64,000 nucleotides of DNA, from positions 1 through 64,000 of the forward strand of contig CACYHA010000004.1 in assembly GCA_902774035.1 (NCBI GenBank), given 5' to 3'. The position numbers and the translations under genes were made by a program. Position 1 is the first letter of the stretch. The number at the start of each line of letters is the position of its first letter. Of this stretch, positions 22,096-34,734 are shown one piece after another. The DNA is from Oscillospiraceae bacterium. Its GTDB lineage: Bacteria; Bacillota; Clostridia; Oscillospirales; Acutalibacteraceae. The notes under the pieces were generated by a model, which was not told the DNA's origin, did not search any database, and saw only the letters and a program-made list of their open reading frames with translations.

Positions 22096-22641
22096 TCAAA
22101 GAATCGCTTCCACAGCTGAACGAACATCCTGCATATCGACTGTCGGCTCAAAGCGGGAGATGACATTGCCTTCGCGGTCGATTAGAAACTTCGTGAAATT
22201 CCATTTGATAAATGCCTTTTCGCCGAATCTCTTGTTGTTGGCCTTTGCAAAGGTGTTGAGCGCGGCGTTTTTGATGCCCCTTCCGAAGCCTTCAAACGGC
22301 TTTTCGGTCGCAAGAAAAGCAAACAGCGGCTCCGCGTCTTCGCCATTGACGTCAATCTTCTTAAACTGCGGAAAATCCGCACCAAATCTCAGCGTGCAGA
22401 ACTGATGAATGTCGTCGGCGTCTCCGGGCGTCTGGTTGGCAAACTGGTTGCAGGGAAAATCAAGGATCTCAAATCCCTGATCCTTCAAATCCTTGTACAT
22501 AGCCTCCAGCGGCTCATAGTGTGGCGTAAAGCCACACCCAGTCGCCGTGTTGACGATCAGCAGCACCTTACCGCTGTAATCGGAAAGAGAAACGTCGTTT
22601 CCCTTTCTATCTTTGACTGTGAAATCATAAACTGTGCGCAT
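22096..22641 (-). CDS. glutathione peroxidase-family thiol peroxidase (Cys type)
   Basis: 181 residues. The peroxidatic residue is Cys36 in NTATGCGFTPHY. The catalytic Gln (FPCNQFANQ) and Trp-Asn (KWNFTKFLID) are present. There is a normal Cys codon, not selenocysteine. Proteins of this type in low-GC Gram-positives normally use thioredoxin rather than glutathione. The gene follows an OhrR-type regulator by 24 bp on the same strand, so it is probably induced by peroxides. Confidence 0.95.
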   Translation of the reverse strand: MRTVYDFTVKDRKGNDVSLSDYSGKVLLIVNTATGCGFTPHYEPLEAMYKDLKDQGFEILDFPCNQFANQTPGDADDIHQFCTLRFGADFPQFKKIDVNGEDAEPLFAFLATEKPFEGFGRGIKNAALNTFAKANNKRFGEKAFIKWNFTKFLIDREGNVISRFEPTVDMQDVRSAVEAIL

Positions 22642-22665
22642 ACGGATACCTCCTATATTCTCTTG

Positions 22666-23103
22666 TTAATTCTTTCTGTCAAGCAGTTCATAAAGCAGCG
22701 TATAAAGTGTTTTTGCCTTTTCCGGCGAAAGAACGACACAGTTTGCCGCTTTCGTCGGAACGTCTTTGAGCAGATACTGCAGAGCCCTGCCCGGTTCTGT
22801 CAGAGTGATAACAACAACGCGTTCGTCCTCACTGCTGCGAGTGCGCTCAATATAACCGGCTTTTTGCATTTTTTTCAGCAGCGGAGAAAGTGTTCCGTTA
22901 TCCAGCATGAGACGCTCCCCCAAAGCGCCGACGGTGACCCCGTCCTGTTCCCACAAAACAAGAAACACGATGTACTGCGTATAAGTCAGGCCAAACGGTT
23001 TCAACAGTGGCGTATAGAGATTGATTACGCCGCGCGCAGCGGCATACAGCGGAAAGCAAAGCTGATTTTCCAGCTTCATCGCCTCACGATAATCATATTT
23101 CAT
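22666..23103 (-). CDS. OhrR-type MarR-family redox regulator
   Basis: 145 residues from ATG 23103; the longer in-frame reading lacks a ribosome-binding site. The N-terminal LENQLCFPLYAAAR carries the OhrR-type redox cysteine (Cys16). Tyrosines of the TYTQYIVFLVLWE helix and the winged-helix DERVVVITLTEPGR follow. Such proteins repress peroxidase genes until an organic peroxide oxidises the cysteine. A palindrome upstream (23124-23158) fits autoregulation of the ohrR-gpx operon. Confidence 0.9.
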   Translation of the reverse strand: MKYDYREAMKLENQLCFPLYAAARGVINLYTPLLKPFGLTYTQYIVFLVLWEQDGVTVGALGERLMLDNGTLSPLLKKMQKAGYIERTRSSEDERVVVITLTEPGRALQYLLKDVPTKAANCVVLSPEKAKTLYTLLYELLDRKN

Positions 23104-29416: not shown

Positions 29417-29445
29417 TTGAAAACCGGAAAAAAATGTGCTATAGT
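29417..29445 (+). promoter_or_regulatory. promoter of the methyltransferase operon
   Basis: TTGAAA (29417-29422), exactly 17 bp, TATAGT (29440-29445). The interval from the sensor pseudogene start (29208) to the first gene (29521) is 312 bp. Apart from this promoter and the adjoining operator I see no gene in it. Confidence 0.85.
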
Positions 29446-29472
29446 TAGCTTGAGCTAATTAGCGAACGCTAA
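29445..29472 (+). promoter_or_regulatory. tandem palindromic operator abutting the -10 box
   Basis: Two 14-bp perfect palindromes lie head to tail: TTAGCTTGAGCTAA (29445-29458) and TTAGCGAACGCTAA (29459-29472). Both fit TTAGC-N4-GCTAA. The first shares its first base with the -10 box. This is the layout expected for a dimeric repressor (for example TetR or MarR type) binding twice at the transcription start. No regulator gene is adjacent. Confidence 0.75.
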
Positions 29473-29520
29473 TCCACTTCCAGATGCAGATGCAAAAACA
29501 ATGAAAAAGGAGGAACCCTT

Positions 29521-30027
29521 ATGAGCATTCCCGTCATTCTGATCGAAATGGCCGTTTTTGCGGCGCTGTTTACCGCTATCGTCTTCACGGCATACAGGGG
29601 CGACAGGAAATACAGCCCCGCCGGGATCAGCAATTATCCGCCCGATATTCAGGCGGAATACTTCAAAACGCACGCGCCGGTCGAGGTTTCCTACCGGTCG
29701 AAAAAGGTTCTGTTGACCAAAGGCTTCGGCGTGCTGCTGTTTACCGTGATCCTGCTGGTCTGCGCCCTGATCGCGGGCGCGAAAACCTTTTGGCAGGGCT
29801 TCGGTCTGGCGTTCGGCCTGATGGTGTGGATCGGCGCCTACGACACGTTCTTTCTGGACTGGGTGCTGTTTGCGCGGCTCCCCATGTTCCGGCTGGAGGG
29901 AACGGAGCACATGGACAAGGCATATCATCAAAAGTGGTTTCACCTGAAAGGCATGCTGTTTCCGGGAATCGTCTTTGCGCTGATCCCGGCCGCGGTCGTC
30001 GGGCTGCTGATCCTGCTGATCCGATAA
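29521..30027 (+). CDS. small membrane protein, first gene of the methyltransferase operon
   Basis: 168 residues with four predicted membrane segments: about 5-25, 70-92, 94-115 and 147-167. The central signature is FGLMVWIGAYDTFFLDWVLF, followed by a polar stretch with GTEHMDKAYHQKW. The family is not recognised. The last gene of the operon (33903-34403) has the same length, topology and an AYDxxFxDxxLxxR signature, so the two are probably paralogues. AAAGGAGG precedes the ATG. It could be a transporter or membrane enzyme subunit; there is no direct evidence. Confidence 0.8.
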   Translation: MSIPVILIEMAVFAALFTAIVFTAYRGDRKYSPAGISNYPPDIQAEYFKTHAPVEVSYRSKKVLLTKGFGVLLFTVILLVCALIAGAKTFWQGFGLAFGLMVWIGAYDTFFLDWVLFARLPMFRLEGTEHMDKAYHQKWFHLKGMLFPGIVFALIPAAVVGLLILLIR

Positions 30028-30040
30028 GAGAGAGATCGAC

Positions 30041-30679
30041 ATGAACTACATCGGAATGCCCATGGGTATGTGGGCGCTTTACAGAACATCCTTTCAATCG
30101 CATCTGGTTTCCGTTCTCGGGTTCAGCGAGAAAGCGGCGAAAAGGATTGCCGCCGCAGCAAAGCCGAAGTATAAAGAGATCATTGCAAAGCTGCCGGAAT
30201 TTGAAAAAGAAGACCGCTTCAAAATGAATATCGTGAACTGCGCCATGTTCGCGTCGTTCCTGCTGTGCATGGAACAAAAGCCGGACGTGGAACGGCTGAC
30301 GACGTTTTACGCCCGCGCCATGATGAACGCGCCGACGCGCGTGTTCTGCCGGTTGGAAGGCAGACAAAAGTTCAGCGCCAAAGACATTGCCGGCATGAAA
30401 GCGACTGCCGCGCTGAACGCAGCGGATCGCAACCCGTATTCATGGAACATGGCGATTCTCCCCTACGCCGACGGCAGCGGCTATGAGGCGCGTTTCACGA
30501 AGTGCGGCATATGTACGCTGATGCGGGAACTGGGACTCTATGCGTTCGTTCCGGCAATGTGCCGTCTGGATTACGACATGACGGCGGCAGGCGGCACGGC
30601 GGATTTTGTGCGCGAATACACGCTGGCTTCCGGCGGGCCCTACTGCGACTGCGGATACAAAAAGAAAGAAGGAACATAA
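30041..30679 (+). CDS. L-2-amino-thiazoline-4-carboxylic acid (ATC) hydrolase-family protein
   Basis: 212 residues. The C-terminal half carries the pattern typical of this clostridial family: FTKCGICTLMRELGLYAFVP, then CRLDYDM, then FVREYTLASGGPYCDCGYKK. The founding member opens the thiazoline ring of ATC on the way to cysteine, but most clostridial relatives are uncharacterised. The several conserved cysteines could bind a metal or take part in thiol chemistry. It is 13 bp downstream of the membrane protein and directly upstream of the HMA gene. Family call likely, activity unproven. Confidence 0.75.
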   Translation: MNYIGMPMGMWALYRTSFQSHLVSVLGFSEKAAKRIAAAAKPKYKEIIAKLPEFEKEDRFKMNIVNCAMFASFLLCMEQKPDVERLTTFYARAMMNAPTRVFCRLEGRQKFSAKDIAGMKATAALNAADRNPYSWNMAILPYADGSGYEARFTKCGICTLMRELGLYAFVPAMCRLDYDMTAAGGTADFVREYTLASGGPYCDCGYKKKEGT

Positions 30680-30680
30680 G

Positions 30681-30935
30681 ATGACAAAAACAACGCTCAA
30701 AATTGACGGCATGATGTGCGGCATGTGCGAAGCGCACATCTGCGACACGATTCGCAACAGCGTGCCCGACGCGAAAAAGGTGAAAGCTTCACACACGAAA
30801 GGCGAAGCGAGCTTTTTAACGGAGACGGTTCCGCGCGAGGATGTGCTCAAGGCAATGATCGACGCCACGGGCTACACATTCGTTTCCATGACGAGCGAAC
30901 CCTGTGAAAAGAAAGGCTGGTTTCATCGAACATGA
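30681..30935 (+). CDS. small heavy-metal-associated (HMA) domain protein
   Basis: 84 residues, a single ferredoxin-like HMA domain of the copper-chaperone type. The metal motif is MMCGMCEAHI (Cys13 and Cys16), followed by VKASHTKGEASF and a C-terminal GYTFVSM. It would bind a soft metal such as Cu(I) through the CxxC pair. There is no copper ATPase nearby; it sits between the ATC hydrolase-family gene and a methyltransferase and overlaps the latter by 4 bp. It may deliver a metal to, or protect, a protein of this operon. Confidence 0.88.
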   Translation: MTKTTLKIDGMMCGMCEAHICDTIRNSVPDAKKVKASHTKGEASFLTETVPREDVLKAMIDATGYTFVSMTSEPCEKKGWFHRT

Positions 30936-31774
30936 ATCAAAATACGGCTTACCACATCGAAAAAAACTCCGTACAGGAAACGCTGGTGATCCCGCTGCTC
31001 GGCCGTGTGGTCTGTTCCGAGCGGTTTCCGCAGTTATTCTCCGACCCCACGGCAAAGCGTATCTGCGATTCGCTGGACTATGACTTTGCAGCCAAACGCA
31101 GGCTGATGGAATCCCCTGCCGGACTGTTCGGCGCACTGGAGGTTGCCCAGCGCCAGTATGACCTGATGCAGGAGGTACTGGACTATCTGAAAGCCCATCC
31201 GAAGGCGGCGGTCGTCAACCTCGGCTGCGGACTGGACGACACCTTCACCCGCGTGGACAACGGCAAGTGCAAGGGTTACAACATCGACATGCCGGACGTG
31301 ATCGCCGTGCGGAATGATCTTCTGCCCGCCGGGGAGCGCGAACAGAACCTCGCCTGCGATCTCAACGACTTTTCGTGGATGGACAGGATCGATGCGGCGG
31401 AAGGCGCGGTCCTCTTTGCCGCCGGGGTGTTCTATTACTTCAAGACGGAACAGGTCAAAACCCTGTTTTGCGAAATGGCAAAGCGGTTCCCCGGCGCGGC
31501 CCTCACGTTTGATTCCTGCAACCGGCGCGGCGCAAAGATGATGATGCGCACCTGGCTCAAGGAAGCGGGGATCACCGACGTTGGCGCGTTCTTCTCGCTC
31601 GAAGATGAAGCCGCACTGCGCACGTGGAGCGCCGCCTTCGCTACGGTCACGTCCAAAAGCTATATGCGCGGCTACCGCGACATCTACCGTGACGTCGGCG
31701 AGTTCCACAAGCTGATGATCCGCTTTTGCGACAAGCTGGTTCGGATGAAAATCGTCAAGATTCAATTTGCATAA
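30932..31774 (+). CDS. class I SAM methyltransferase, leucine carboxyl methyltransferase-like
   Basis: 280 residues. The N-terminal ERFPQLFSDPTAKRICDSLD and the SAM motif VVNLGCGLDDTFTRV belong to the LCMT/Tcmp-type family, which often methylates carboxyl or hydroxyl groups of small molecules. Later motifs are NIDMPDVIAVR, AAGVFYYFK and ALTFDSCNRRG. No membrane segment. It is the first of four different methyltransferase genes in a row; the acceptor is unknown. Confidence 0.88.
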   Translation: MNQNTAYHIEKNSVQETLVIPLLGRVVCSERFPQLFSDPTAKRICDSLDYDFAAKRRLMESPAGLFGALEVAQRQYDLMQEVLDYLKAHPKAAVVNLGCGLDDTFTRVDNGKCKGYNIDMPDVIAVRNDLLPAGEREQNLACDLNDFSWMDRIDAAEGAVLFAAGVFYYFKTEQVKTLFCEMAKRFPGAALTFDSCNRRGAKMMMRTWLKEAGITDVGAFFSLEDEAALRTWSAAFATVTSKSYMRGYRDIYRDVGEFHKLMIRFCDKLVRMKIVKIQFA

Positions 31775-31786
31775 GGAGTGTTTTTC

Positions 31787-32575
31787 ATGAAACCCGATTA
31801 CAAAAACTGGATGCCGAAAGGTATGGTTTTGACCGCTGCAGCGGCGACCGCCGTTTTTCTGCTGCTGTTTGTCGTCTTCGGATGCACAGGCATTCTGTCC
31901 GGCACGCTGAAAACCGTGTTGTTCATCGTCTTTCTTGTCGGCACGGTGATCGGCCTCGGCGTGACGCTTTGGATGGTGCTGATGTACCGCGCGTTTTCCT
32001 ACAACGGCAAGCGGCAAATGTCGCGCCAGATCATTGAAGGGATCGCAAAGCATGTGCGGCTCCCGGACGGCGGCAAAGGCCTCGACGTGGGCTGCGGCAG
32101 CGGCGCGCTGACCATCGCCGTTGCCAAGCGCAACCCGAACGCGCAGATGGTCGGACTTGACCGCTGGGGCAAGGAGTATGCCTCGTTCAACAAGCCGCTG
32201 TGCGAAAGCAACGCCAAAGCCGAGGGCGTCTGCAACACGTCCTTTGTGCAGGGCGACGCGACAAAACTCGCTTTCCCCGAAGGGAGCTTTGACGCGGTGG
32301 TGAGCAATTATGTCTATCACAACATCCCGACGAAAGACCGGCAGGCGCTGCTGCTGGAAACGCTGCGCGTTTTGAAAAAGGGCGGCGCGTTCGCCATCCA
32401 CGACATTTTTTCAAAGTCGAAATACGGCGATATGCGGGCGTTTGTTCAAAAGCTGAAAGCTATGGGTTATGAGCAGGTAGAACTGATCGACACCACCGAC
32501 GGCACCTTTATCACAAAGACGGAATCCATCTGGATGGAGCTGGCCGGCTCGGCGCTGCTCGTCGGCAGAAAGTGA
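31787..32575 (+). CDS. membrane-anchored class I SAM methyltransferase
   Basis: 262 residues from ATG 31787, with AAGGAG eight bases upstream. Two N-terminal membrane helices at about 13-60 place the catalytic domain at the inner face of the membrane. SAM motif I is GLDVGCGSGALTIAVA; later motifs are GLDRWG, FDAVVSNYVYHNIP and LRVLKKGGAFAIHD. Membrane anchoring suggests a hydrophobic or membrane-bound acceptor. It lies 12 bp behind the LCMT-like gene. Confidence 0.88.
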   Translation: MKPDYKNWMPKGMVLTAAAATAVFLLLFVVFGCTGILSGTLKTVLFIVFLVGTVIGLGVTLWMVLMYRAFSYNGKRQMSRQIIEGIAKHVRLPDGGKGLDVGCGSGALTIAVAKRNPNAQMVGLDRWGKEYASFNKPLCESNAKAEGVCNTSFVQGDATKLAFPEGSFDAVVSNYVYHNIPTKDRQALLLETLRVLKKGGAFAIHDIFSKSKYGDMRAFVQKLKAMGYEQVELIDTTDGTFITKTESIWMELAGSALLVGRK

Positions 32576-32582
32576 GGAAACC

Positions 32583-33209
32583 ATGGGACTGCTGCACAAC
32601 TTTTTTAACCAGACAAGAAAGCCCGAGGGCTTCCTCGGCAAGCTGATGGTCGGCGGCATGAACAGCGGGCACGCCGCGGTCGCGGACTGGGGCATGGCGT
32701 TTCTTGACGGTCTGCAGCCGCAGAAAATCCTGGACGCAGGCTGCGGCGGCGGGCGCAACATCGGCGCGCTGCTCGAGCTTTATCCGGCTGCAACTGGCGT
32801 CGCCGTGGACTATTCGCCGGTCAGCGTGGAAAAGAGCAAGCAGCACAACAAGGCGCTGATCGACGCCGGACGCTGCCGCGTGATACAGGCAGACGTTTCC
32901 GCCCTGCCGTTGGAACGCGATTGCTTCGATCTTGTGACGGCGTTTGAAACGGTCTATTTCTGGCCGGGCCTGCCGCGCAGCTTCGCCGAAGTCGCGCGGG
33001 TGCTGAAAAACGGCGGCGCGTTTCTGATCGTCAACGAATCCGACGGCACCGACAAAACGGCAAAGAAGTTTGAATCCATCATCGACGGCATGGTGTGCTA
33101 CACGGCGCAGGACATCGAAGCCGCGCTGAAAGCGGCGGGCTTTGGCGACATCCGCGTGTTCAGGCACGAAACCAAGCCGTGTATGGCTGTGCTGGCAAGA
33201 AAGGGATGA
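32583..33209 (+). CDS. class I SAM methyltransferase (Methyltransf_11 type)
   Basis: 208 residues. Motif I is ILDAGCGGGRNIGALLEL; further motifs are GVAVDYSPVSVEKSK, CFDLVTAFETVYFWPGLP and ARVLKNGGAFLIVNE. The N-terminus has a short FFNQTRKPEGFLGKLMVGGM segment found in many clostridial methyltransferases of this type. Start ATG with GTGAGGAAACC upstream. The product is soluble. It lies 7 bp after the membrane-anchored enzyme and 4 bp before the next methyltransferase gene. Confidence 0.88.
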   Translation: MGLLHNFFNQTRKPEGFLGKLMVGGMNSGHAAVADWGMAFLDGLQPQKILDAGCGGGRNIGALLELYPAATGVAVDYSPVSVEKSKQHNKALIDAGRCRVIQADVSALPLERDCFDLVTAFETVYFWPGLPRSFAEVARVLKNGGAFLIVNESDGTDKTAKKFESIIDGMVCYTAQDIEAALKAAGFGDIRVFRHETKPCMAVLARKG

Positions 33210-33213
33210 AGCC

Positions 33214-33909
33214 ATGACATGCAAAGAGCAAATCAAAAGCGCTTACAAGCTGACCGGCGGCCACGCGAGCTTTTACGACGGCATGATGACCTATGCCACC
33301 TTGCCGGGCAAGGCGATCTGCCGCCTTGTCTGGAACATGGACGGCGAAAAGAATCTGCGCTATGTGGAACAGGCGCTTTCCGGCGTGCCGGAGGATTTCG
33401 GCGGCAAGCTGCTGGAGGTGCCGGTGGGCACGGGCGTTCTGACCATGCCGGTCTACAAAGAGCTCCCGAATGCGGACATAACCTGTCTGGATTATTCAGC
33501 AGAAATGATGGCGGCGGCAAAGCAAAAAGCCGCCTTTGCCGGAATCGGGAACATCACGTTTTTACAGGGCGATGTCGGCGCGCTGCCGTTCCCGGACGAG
33601 CACTTTGACATTGTGCTGTCGCTCAACGGTTTTCACGCTTTTCCCGATAAGGACGCCGCCTACCGCGAAACCTTTCGGGTGCTGAAACCGGGCGGCGCCT
33701 TTTGCGGCTGCTTCTATATTCAGGGCGGCTGCAAACGGACCGATTGGTTCATCCGGCATCTGTATGCGCCGAAGGGCTTTTTTACCCCGCCGTTTGAAAC
33801 GCAGGCTTCGCTCAGAGCGCGGTTGCAGAAAATGTATCAGGACGTAACCGTAACGGCAGTGGAGGGCATCGGCTGCTTTTGCTGCAAGAAGGAGGTTAAA
33901 TCATGCTGA
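33214..33909 (+). CDS. class I SAM methyltransferase (UbiE/Methyltransf_11 type)
   Basis: 231 residues from ATG 33214. Motif I is LLEVPVGTGVLTMPVY; the usual DxGxGTG is EVPVGTG. Then come CLDYSAEMMAAAKQK, FDIVLSLNGFHAFPD and FRVLKPGGAFCGCFY. It has several cysteines (CGCFYIQGGCKRTD, GCFCCKKEVKSC), with a cysteine-rich end. It overlaps the last membrane protein gene by 7 bp. The four methyltransferases differ clearly from one another, so each probably has its own acceptor or step. Confidence 0.87.
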   Translation: MTCKEQIKSAYKLTGGHASFYDGMMTYATLPGKAICRLVWNMDGEKNLRYVEQALSGVPEDFGGKLLEVPVGTGVLTMPVYKELPNADITCLDYSAEMMAAAKQKAAFAGIGNITFLQGDVGALPFPDEHFDIVLSLNGFHAFPDKDAAYRETFRVLKPGGAFCGCFYIQGGCKRTDWFIRHLYAPKGFFTPPFETQASLRARLQKMYQDVTVTAVEGIGCFCCKKEVKSC

Positions 33910-34403
33910 CAACAATCATCCTTTCCCTTGTGATGATGGCGGGGCTTTTCCTGCTGCTGTATGCATGGGTCGCTCTGATCCAGAATCCGCGCTTTTTCTC
34001 CACCGCGCCAAAGGAGGTGCAGGCGGCGGTGCAGCCGAAGCCGGAACGGTTCCGGGGCGCGCACTTCTTCGGCTGGAAGCTGGCGATCATTGCGATCGTG
34101 CTGATGGGCGGCGCCGTTTTCTTCGGCTGCTGGGATGGCATCCAAAACGGTTTCAGCTTCGGCCAGTTCTTCCTGCGCTTTCTCATCATGCTGCTGGGGC
34201 TGAAAGCGTATGACGTGTTGTTCTTCGACTTTTTCCTGCTTTGCCGCTCCGGTTTTTTTCCGCGCTATTATCCCGAGGTGAAGGAACACCTCGGGCCGCA
34301 TCTGTTCGGTTACAACTGGAAAACCCACGTGCTGACCGGTTCGCTGAGCATTGTGGGCGCTGCGGTCTTGGCGAGGATCTGCGTATCGATTGCGAGCGGC
34401 TAA
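33903..34403 (+). CDS. small membrane protein, last gene of the methyltransferase operon
   Basis: 166 residues with four predicted membrane segments: about 4-25, 57-78, 88-113 and 143-162. The signature GLKAYDVLFFDFFLLCRSGF parallels the GAYDTFFLDWVLFARLPMF of the first gene, and length and helix spacing are the same, so they are likely paralogues. It begins inside the last codons of the preceding methyltransferase gene. Family not recognised. The 245 bp after it, to the tRNA, hold no convincing gene and no rightward terminator that I can see. Confidence 0.8.
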   Translation: MLTTIILSLVMMAGLFLLLYAWVALIQNPRFFSTAPKEVQAAVQPKPERFRGAHFFGWKLAIIAIVLMGGAVFFGCWDGIQNGFSFGQFFLRFLIMLLGLKAYDVLFFDFFLLCRSGFFPRYYPEVKEHLGPHLFGYNWKTHVLTGSLSIVGAAVLARICVSIASG

Positions 34404-34648: not shown

Positions 34649-34734
34649 TGGCGGAGAGTTAGGGATTCGAACCCTAGGTACTTTCGTACACAGCATTTCG
34701 AGTGCTGCACCTTCGACCACTCGGACAACTCTCC
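34649..34734 (-). tRNA. tRNA-Ser(CGA)
   Basis: 86 nt with encoded CCA. The acceptor GGAGAGT/ACTCTCC is fully paired, and the long variable arm is typical of a class II serine tRNA. The anticodon loop CTCGAAA gives anticodon CGA (UCG codons). The T loop is TTCGAAT. Confidence 0.95.

What the first reader, a model, noticed from the sequence alone, without database searches (positions are those of the whole stretch)
29417..34403. Compact operon with four different methyltransferases, an HMA protein, an ATC hydrolase-family protein and two membrane proteins
Eight genes lie on one strand with gaps of at most 13 bp, or overlaps, behind one near-consensus promoter. The four SAM enzymes are of different types (LCMT-like, membrane-anchored, and two Methyltransf_11 types), so they are unlikely to be simple duplicates. 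Such a set suggests a small-molecule or lipid-modifying pathway. I do not recognise this combination as a characterised system; a co-occurrence search would decide whether it is conserved.
Basis: partly seen in the sequence, partly recalled or inferred. Interest (0 to 1): 0.75.

Follow-up and report, generated by a model that had tools for sequence, protein, structure and literature searches.

The report
Iron-controlled methyltransferase operon of gut Clostridia
An eight-gene operon of unassigned enzymes in a gut clostridium carries the DNA switch of the cell's iron-uptake genes, and reshuffled versions of it sit beside iron genes in related bacteria, so it is probably an unrecognised way of handling iron-carrying small molecules when iron is scarce.

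Summary
In detail: eight same-strand genes (29521-34403), gaps of at most 13 bp, behind TTGAAA-N17-TATAGT. The genome (2.3 Mb, 85% complete) has seven such sites: two here, four at feoA-feoA-feoB, one at an [FeFe]-hydrogenase operon. In 80 loci fetched only by the ATC protein there are 123 sites, none inside predicted genes (control palindromes 12-24). Those loci carry shuffled subsets of the same families, beside FeoB (9 of 80), a DUF6110/P1B-ATPase pair (8), ZIP-like genes (25) and ABC pairs (11; the three subunits tested resemble siderophore importers). The window's exact gene order was not found again: content is conserved, order is not. The two membrane proteins are one family. Best reading: an iron-starvation operon with one version of a modular cassette that processes a small iron-binding molecule at the membrane. 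Iron control is well supported by sequence but not in every congener; substrate and chemistry are inference. The literature searches named in the report listed no description of this cassette.

The parts
29417..29445 (+). Promoter-like TTGAAA-N17-TATAGT with TG before the -10
29445..29458 (.). First operator palindrome TTAGCTTGAGCTAA (TTAG-N6-CTAA, core of the DtxR/IdeR box), overlapping the last base of the -10
   Evidence: consensus of the full box in PMC7762939 (passages)
29459..29472 (.). Second operator palindrome TTAGCGAACGCTAA, abutting the first; the same abutting arrangement in L048 (its repeat L109), L148 and L158
29521..30027 (+). mem1: 168-aa membrane protein, 3 hydrophobic stretches, D108 and D113 invariant in 34 relatives
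30041..30679 (+). ATC: PF14196 protein, 212 aa; C155, C174, D177 and R191 invariant in a 34-sequence alignment that includes four divergent ATC-like proteins
30681..30935 (+). HMA: 84-aa metallochaperone-like protein, GMMCGMCEAH
30932..31774 (+). LCMT-like (PF04072) protein, 280 aa; SAM motif VNLGCGLD kept in relatives
31787..32575 (+). MTa: class I methyltransferase with hydrophobic N-terminus (residues 9-72), 262 aa
32583..33209 (+). MTb: class I methyltransferase, 208 aa
33214..33909 (+). MTc: class I methyltransferase, 231 aa
33903..34403 (+). mem2: 166-aa membrane protein, 4 hydrophobic stretches, same family as mem1; D104 and D109 invariant in 26 relatives

Best explanation
This is an iron-starvation operon. 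A DtxR-type repressor loaded with Fe2+ sits on the tandem operator over the -10/start and blocks transcription; when iron runs low it leaves, as at feoAAB, and the eight genes are made (operator and its siting shown from sequence; repressor identity, metal and direction of control inferred). The products are one version of a modular enzyme cassette. Most likely they process a small iron-binding molecule at the cytoplasmic membrane: the ATC protein (V4R-like ligand-binding or C-S lyase domain) holds or opens the ligand, the methyltransferases cap its carboxylate and other donor groups so that the metal is let go, the HMA protein (in relatives with a ZIP-like transporter) takes the metal over, and the mem proteins hold the assembly at the membrane (all inferred). 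Whether the molecule is an imported siderophore, a haem-type tetrapyrrole or a self-made metallophore is open; dismantling is preferred because I recognised no assembly enzyme among the neighbours.
For: Operator: 7 TTAG-N6-CTAA sites in the genome; 2 here, 4 at feoA-feoA-feoB-FeoB_associated, 1 at an [FeFe]-hydrogenase operon. In 80 loci chosen only by ATC similarity: 123 sites in 1.02 Mb, 0 inside predicted CDS, 56 of 80 loci; five control palindromes 12-24; sites before 64 of 174 starts of recurrent-family genes against 22 of 291 other starts. The spacing is specific: N6 79 against 0.5 expected. A DtxR-family gene is in the genome, 57% identical to one divergent from feoA in L002. In four congeners the site fronts Feo, ferredoxin, hydrogenase-type, HMA, binding-protein/FecCD and flavodoxin genes (part by eye). 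FeoB in 9 of 80 loci, against about 1.3 if two feoB per genome are assumed, P about 1e-5; DUF6110-P1B pair in 8 of 80. Both subunits of the L063 ABC pair and the B subunit of the L105 pair have a chain of the yersiniabactin importer as best half-transporter match, with IrtA or IrtB close.
Against: No step of the chemistry was tested. The genome has no close relative of the L063 A subunit (best 33% identity; assembly 85% complete). Fur is also present. The DtxR homologue lacks an SH3 domain, and such forms are said not to respond to Fe2+ in vivo (PMC7762939, passages), so the effector could be Mn2+. By count the stricter site is not enriched over 34 genomes of the genus (92 against 122 control matches), and some congener sites lie in long open frames. 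In Faecalibacterium prausnitzii co-expression data an ATC-hydrolase term and a FeoA term fall in different modules (PMC9674144, passages; which ATC genes is not said). One operator fronts iron-consuming hydrogenase genes, odd for a simple starvation regulon. 24 of 80 loci have no site; 9 of 80 show only one of the eight families and in one the gene caller missed even ATC; only 30 of 80 are full length.
Confidence: 0.45

Rival explanations
1. The cassette makes or tailors a secreted metallophore; the ABC pair in relatives brings the loaded form back.
For: Iron operator; adjacent ABC pairs in 11 of 80 loci (one pair and one further subunit compared with solved structures) and, with its own operator, downstream of the cluster in the nearest relative L105; several tailoring-type enzymes whose combinations vary between species.
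Against: No NRPS, NIS synthetase, nicotianamine synthase or ligase was recognised by eye from the first 70 residues of 71 extra genes in the cluster runs (not profile-searched); no transporter in the window operon.
Confidence: 0.2
2. Haem or other tetrapyrrole processing under iron starvation: ATC proteins bind the macrocycle, LCMT methylates propionate carboxyls, hydrolases act later.
For: An archaeal domain (MetOD1) is reported as similar to haem-NO-binding, V4R and ATC-hydrolase domains and shares three conserved cysteines with the last two (PMC5847659, passages); an ATC protein (TolI) sits in the tolyporphin cluster (PMC8401325, passage).
Against: No haem receptor or haem-cleaving enzyme was recognised by eye in the clusters; the relation was not tested here by fold (structure prediction switched off).
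Confidence: 0.12
3. Membrane or quinone remodelling in iron-poor cells by membrane-bound methyltransferases and mem/DUF6796 proteins.
For: MTa has a hydrophobic N-terminus, two mem proteins; MTc's best NCBIfam hit is MenG/UbiE; DUF6796 membrane proteins in 24 of 80 loci (two members tested by Pfam; count).
Against: The MenG/UbiE score is far below the family cut-off (67.8 against 158.35 bits); it does not explain HMA, ZIP and Feo adjacency.
Confidence: 0.1
4. Part of an iron-storage organelle (ferrosome-like) or P1B6-ATPase platform.
For: DUF6110 next to a P1B ATPase in 8 of 80 loci; DUF6110 proteins are said to be typically encoded with P1B6 ATPases (PMC9374683, passages); FezA and FezB are required for ferrosomes in C. 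difficile (PMC12574912, passages).
Against: No DUF6110/P1B pair in the window operon; 72 of 80 loci lack the adjacent pair on the ATC strand; that DUF6110 is FezA is my recollection and was not shown here.
Confidence: 0.08
5. Cysteine-precursor catabolism as the Pfam name suggests (hydrolysis of 2-amino-thiazoline-4-carboxylate).
For: PF14196 match, 72.3 bits against a cut-off of 28.1.
Against: Iron operator, and companions unlike a cysteine pathway; a name is not an activity.
Confidence: 0.03

Closest known systems
DtxR/IdeR iron regulons (box TTAGGTTAGCCTAACCTAA; PMC7762939 passages)
   Same: TTAG-N6-CTAA core, site on the promoter, Feo and importer-type genes under the same site
   Different: Clostridial host (judged from relatives' record titles), short MntR-sized regulator, abutting 14-bp copies, and an enzyme cassette not mentioned among the targets in the passages seen
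Yersiniabactin and mycobactin import pairs YbtPQ and IrtAB (structure-database hits)
   Same: The ABC subunits tested from related clusters match these best among half-transporters
   Different: Absent from the window operon, no close relative of the A subunit in its genome; no NRPS partner recognised
DUF6110-P1B6 ATPase modules and fez ferrosome clusters (PMC9374683, PMC12574912 passages)
   Same: DUF6110-P1B pair beside the cluster in some relatives
   Different: Not in the window; membership not tested beyond domains
ATC hydrolase (PF14196) and TolI of the tolyporphin cluster (PMC8401325 passage)
   Same: Same family name (TolI's assignment is that paper's; PF14196 tested here for the window protein)
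   Different: Different companions and control; activity unknown

Membership tests
DtxR-type iron regulon | Operator with the DtxR-box core at the promoter | tested here: met
   Two copies at 29445-29472 over the -10/start
DtxR-type iron regulon | Same operator before known iron-uptake genes in the same genome | tested here: met
   4 of the genome's 7 sites at feoA-feoA-feoB
DtxR-type iron regulon | DtxR-family regulator in the genome | tested here: met
   One PF01325/PF02742 protein at C6:38140; assembly 85% complete
DtxR-type iron regulon | Fe2+-dependent binding and derepression in low iron | not testable with these tools
   Needs EMSA and RNA-seq
Metallophore biosynthesis cluster | Core assembly enzyme (NRPS, NIS, nicotianamine synthase or ligase) | tested here: inconclusive
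   None among the window's eight genes; none recognised by eye from the first 70 residues of 71 extra genes of relatives
Metallophore biosynthesis or uptake cluster | Dedicated transporter in the operon | tested here: not met
   None in the window; in relatives an adjacent ABC pair in 11 of 80 loci
Ferrosome (fez) cluster | FezB-type P1B6 ATPase with FezA partner | tested here: not met
   Absent from the window operon; DUF6110-P1B pair in 8 of 80 relatives
ATC hydrolase (PF14196) | Profile match above the curated cut-off | tested here: met
   72.3 bits against 28.1
ATC hydrolase (PF14196) | Hydrolysis of 2-amino-thiazoline-4-carboxylate | not testable with these tools
   Needs enzyme assay
LCMT-like methyltransferase (PF04072) | Profile match and SAM motif kept | tested here: met
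   42.2 bits against 22.3; VNLGCGLD largely conserved in 40 sequences

The most novel reading that the evidence does not exclude
Gut Clostridia carry a widespread, constantly reshuffled iron-starvation cassette that frees iron from captured chelates by enzymatic dismantling: methyltransferases cap the metal-binding groups and ATC, alpha/beta and MBL-fold hydrolases open the ligand, so that iron passes to HMA/ZIP-type proteins. This would be a route of siderophore piracy, with species-specific combinations matched to different ligands.
Probability: 0.2. Interest if true: 0.85.

Novelty: new variant of a known kind. Interest (0 to 1): 0.6.

Why it matters
It gives a testable role (iron starvation) to a set of unassigned enzyme families in gut and rumen Clostridia, including Faecalibacterium relatives (L064, L071-L073), and ties PF14196 proteins to iron. 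If the cassette handles siderophores or haem, it bears on how commensals compete with other gut bacteria for iron. The operator gives an immediate way to map the regulon in unculturable species.

Tried and rejected
Simple duplication of methyltransferases: rejected for LCMT; MTa, MTb and MTc do share a core at 30-42%. TetR/MarR as local regulator: TetR-like genes in 5 of 80 loci; the operator points to DtxR. Arsenic methylation (ArsM-like): the best ArsM model for MTc scores 64.1 against a cut-off of 510 bits; of the cysteines at the MTc C-terminus only one is kept in 70% or more of relatives. Chance operator: rejected by spacing, coding/intergenic split and location, although the count over the genus is not enriched (92 against 122) and the looser pattern in the own genome is rarer than its control (7 against 29). 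Solved-structure relatives: for ATC one hit at E 0.027 and two at E 0.31 or worse with a profile, none convincing; none for LCMT. Literature: searches listed no description of this cassette; I saw listings and, for PMC9674144, PMC12574912, PMC11334425, PMC7762939, PMC9374683, PMC8401325 and PMC5847659, passages. The library lacks most subscription papers, and the two main ferrosome papers are not held.
Full report
Anatomy. Eight + strand genes lie at 29521-34403 with gaps of 13, 1, -4, 12, 7, 4 and -7 bp. Pfam gives ATC_hydrolase, HMA, LCM and three class I methyltransferases, and nothing for the two membrane proteins. The membrane proteins are one family: BLAST 28% over 105 aa, profile-profile probability 98.4%, each with two invariant aspartates five residues apart. 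LCMT shows no similarity to the others; MTa, MTb and MTc share a SAM-binding core at 30-42% over 100-111 aa.

The switch. The promoter TTGAAA-N17-TATAGT (29417-29445) is followed by two abutting palindromes, TTAGCTTGAGCTAA and TTAGCGAACGCTAA (29445-29472). TTAG-N6-CTAA is the first 14 bases of the DtxR consensus TTAGGTTAGCCTAACCTAA quoted in PMC7762939 (passages seen). In the window's genome (2,295,736 bases, 85% complete) the pattern occurs 7 times: 2 here, 4 at feoA-feoA-feoB-FeoB_associated (C16), 1 before an NADH-linked [FeFe]-hydrogenase operon (C24). The control pattern read backwards occurs 29 times, so the count is not high; what speaks is the location, 5 of 5 sites outside this operon at iron-linked genes. 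The stricter TTAGC-N4-GCTAA occurs 5 times against 0 for its control.

The switch in relatives. The ATC protein was used to fetch loci; 338 relatives were found and the best 80 kept, only 30 of them at the full 16.6 kb. They hold 123 sites in 1,024,854 bases, none inside a predicted gene, in 56 of 80 loci; five control palindromes gave 12, 15, 16, 24 and 20. Of the 123, 103 lie within 300 bases before a gene of a recurrent family, 14 before other genes, 6 before none. Sites precede 64 of 174 starts of recurrent-family genes that have a gap of at least 80 bases, and 22 of 291 other starts. In upstream regions of recurrent families (142, less those of 50 bases or fewer) the spacing N6 gave 79 against 0.5 expected, N10 7 against 0.4, other spacings 0-3. 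The gene caller was home-made and missed ATC itself in L080.

The regulon from whole-genome site lists. I followed all stricter sites of four of the 34 genomes of the genus, picked because they have many sites, so this is not a fair sample of the genus. G019 (9 sites): the ATC operon, a Trep_Strep plus ABC-pair operon, ferredoxin, HMA (2), FeoB, two hydrogenase-type operons, and one unclear (no Pfam match). G012 (9): Feo (3), HMA-ZIP (2), ferredoxin, two hydrogenase-type operons, one between an ApbE gene and a 373-aa gene. G028 (8): the ATC/flavodoxin cluster (3), Feo (2), a binding-protein/FecCD operon, hydrogenase-type, and one short-chain dehydrogenase with no iron link. G030 (7): the ATC/flavodoxin cluster (3), Feo (2), one between an 85-aa gene and a MacB-like ABC gene, one with no clear target. 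Pfam was run on ten of these genes and on the own-genome Feo and hydrogenase genes; the other labels are by similarity to the cluster library or by eye, and several sites lie between divergent genes. Against the reading, over all 34 genomes the count is 92 against 122 control matches (summed by me), and several sites in other congeners lie in long open frames, so not every species uses the site.

The cassette in relatives. On the ATC strand, of 80 loci: LCMT 39, MTc 37, mem2 28, MTb 26, HMA 25, MTa 24, close mem1 7 (the wider mem family 34). At least four of the eight families occur in 31 loci, at least six in 12, all eight only in L002, where they follow FeoA-FeoA-FeoB-FeoB_associated in another order. 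Further recurrent families on that strand: MBL-fold 26, ZIP-like 25, DUF6796 24, alpha/beta hydrolases (28, 13 and 8 for three groups), other ATC-like proteins 19 and 15, ketopantoate-reductase-like 11, DUF3793 11, DUF6110 10 (adjacent P1B ATPase 8), FeoB 9, DtxR 5, TetR-like 5, adjacent ABC pairs 11. Labels rest on one or two members each: Pfam or NCBIfam for MBL, ZIP, DUF6796, two alpha/beta groups, ATC-like, DUF6110, P1B, FeoB, DtxR, flavodoxin (ZIP, ketopantoate reductase and DtxR score below NCBIfam's cut-offs); DUF3793, TetR, MacB and ICMT are recalled or by eye, and NCBIfam found nothing for the DUF3793 one. Nine FeoB loci against about 1.3 expected (my assumption: two feoB per 2.4 Mb genome) has a Poisson probability near 1e-5. 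Of 147 related genomes searched, the window's own included, 17 have an LCMT match, so the cassette is patchy. The nearest one (L105, LCMT 88% identical) has ATC-HMA-ZIP-LCMT-MTa-MTb-mem2 with one operator in front and a second before the ABC-pair operon. The window's order was not found in the 80 loci nor in nine further stretches, three of which repeat contigs of the 80.

The ABC pairs. Both subunits of the L063 pair and the B subunit of the L105 pair were compared with solved structures (best 60 rows shown each time). Two-halved eukaryotic pumps lead by scores summed over two halves. Among half-transporters the best are 6p6i chain A at 306 bits (IrtA 297, MsbA 265) for the L063 A subunit; 6p6i chain B at 273 (TM288 235, IrtB 229) for the L063 B subunit; 6p6i chain B at 285 (chain A 252, IrtB 248) for the L105 B subunit. 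A nearly identical chain, 8vsi_B, is named YbtQ of the yersiniabactin-iron transporter; that chain A is YbtP I infer. This is resemblance, not proof of import. The window's genome has no close relative of the L063 A subunit (best 33%); the B subunit was not searched there.

Mechanism. Shown: the operator, its siting, its recurrence before iron genes, and the shared gene content. Inferred: repression by Fe-loaded DtxR, and the chemistry. The archaeal MetOD1 domain is reported as similar to haem-NO-binding, V4R and ATC-hydrolase domains and shares three cysteines with the last two (PMC5847659, passages), and an ATC-hydrolase-like protein sits in the tolyporphin cluster (PMC8401325, passage). In 34 ATC-type proteins, four of them divergent, C155, C174, D177 and R191 are invariant, which would fit a metal- or ligand-binding site; this is my reading. 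Hydrolases and methyltransferases without a recognised assembly enzyme (by eye from the first 70 residues of 71 genes) fit taking apart or tailoring a ligand better than building one, but metallophore synthesis is a serious rival.

Regulator caveat. The one DtxR homologue found is 124 aa with only the two DtxR domains. A review passage says that forms without the SH3 domain are not Fe2+-responsive in vivo. The L002 homologue scores best against MntR models, below their cut-offs. Iron is therefore inferred from the target genes, not from the protein. Fur is also present.

Novelty. Iron-box-controlled operons are a known kind. The enzyme content is not one that I could find described (searches; the library is partial). 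In Faecalibacterium prausnitzii co-expression work (PMC9674144, passages) an ATC-hydrolase term is enriched in one module and a FeoA term in another, which does not favour common control there, though the genes behind the terms are not named in what I saw. Hence new variant of a known kind, with a bolder reading kept open.

Noticed in passing
L104:9005-9018 (own genome C24:13004); L150, L154, L157: The iron-box palindrome fronts NADH-linked [FeFe]-hydrogenase-type operons in four genomes (Pfam on L104 and the first gene of L150, the rest by eye), odd for a starvation repressor.
   Followed up: partly
L148:3824-4075 and L158:3020-3642: Stand-alone HMA and HMA-ZIP mini-operons in congeners carry the same abutting tandem operator as the window.
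   Followed up: partly
L004:3965-4747 and L005:6384-7226: A short (261-281 aa) SAM-synthetase-like protein lies inside two clusters; only the N-terminal domain matches Pfam (tested on L004).
   Followed up: partly
L041, L022, L058: Records titled Succinivibrionaceae or Chloroflexi carry ATC clusters like those of Clostridiales (L041 has nearly the same gene map as L042); the titles may be wrong.
   Followed up: no
window 22099-23103, - strand: Glutathione-peroxidase-like gene beside a MarR-like regulator (by eye only).
   Followed up: no
window 34649-34734, - strand: tRNA-Ser (anticodon CGA) just downstream of the operon.
   Followed up: no
L153:3292-6188: Iron-box-fronted operon: binding protein and FecCD permease flanked by two proteins without a Pfam match that resemble each other at the start (by eye), possibly haem- or iron-binding.
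   Followed up: no
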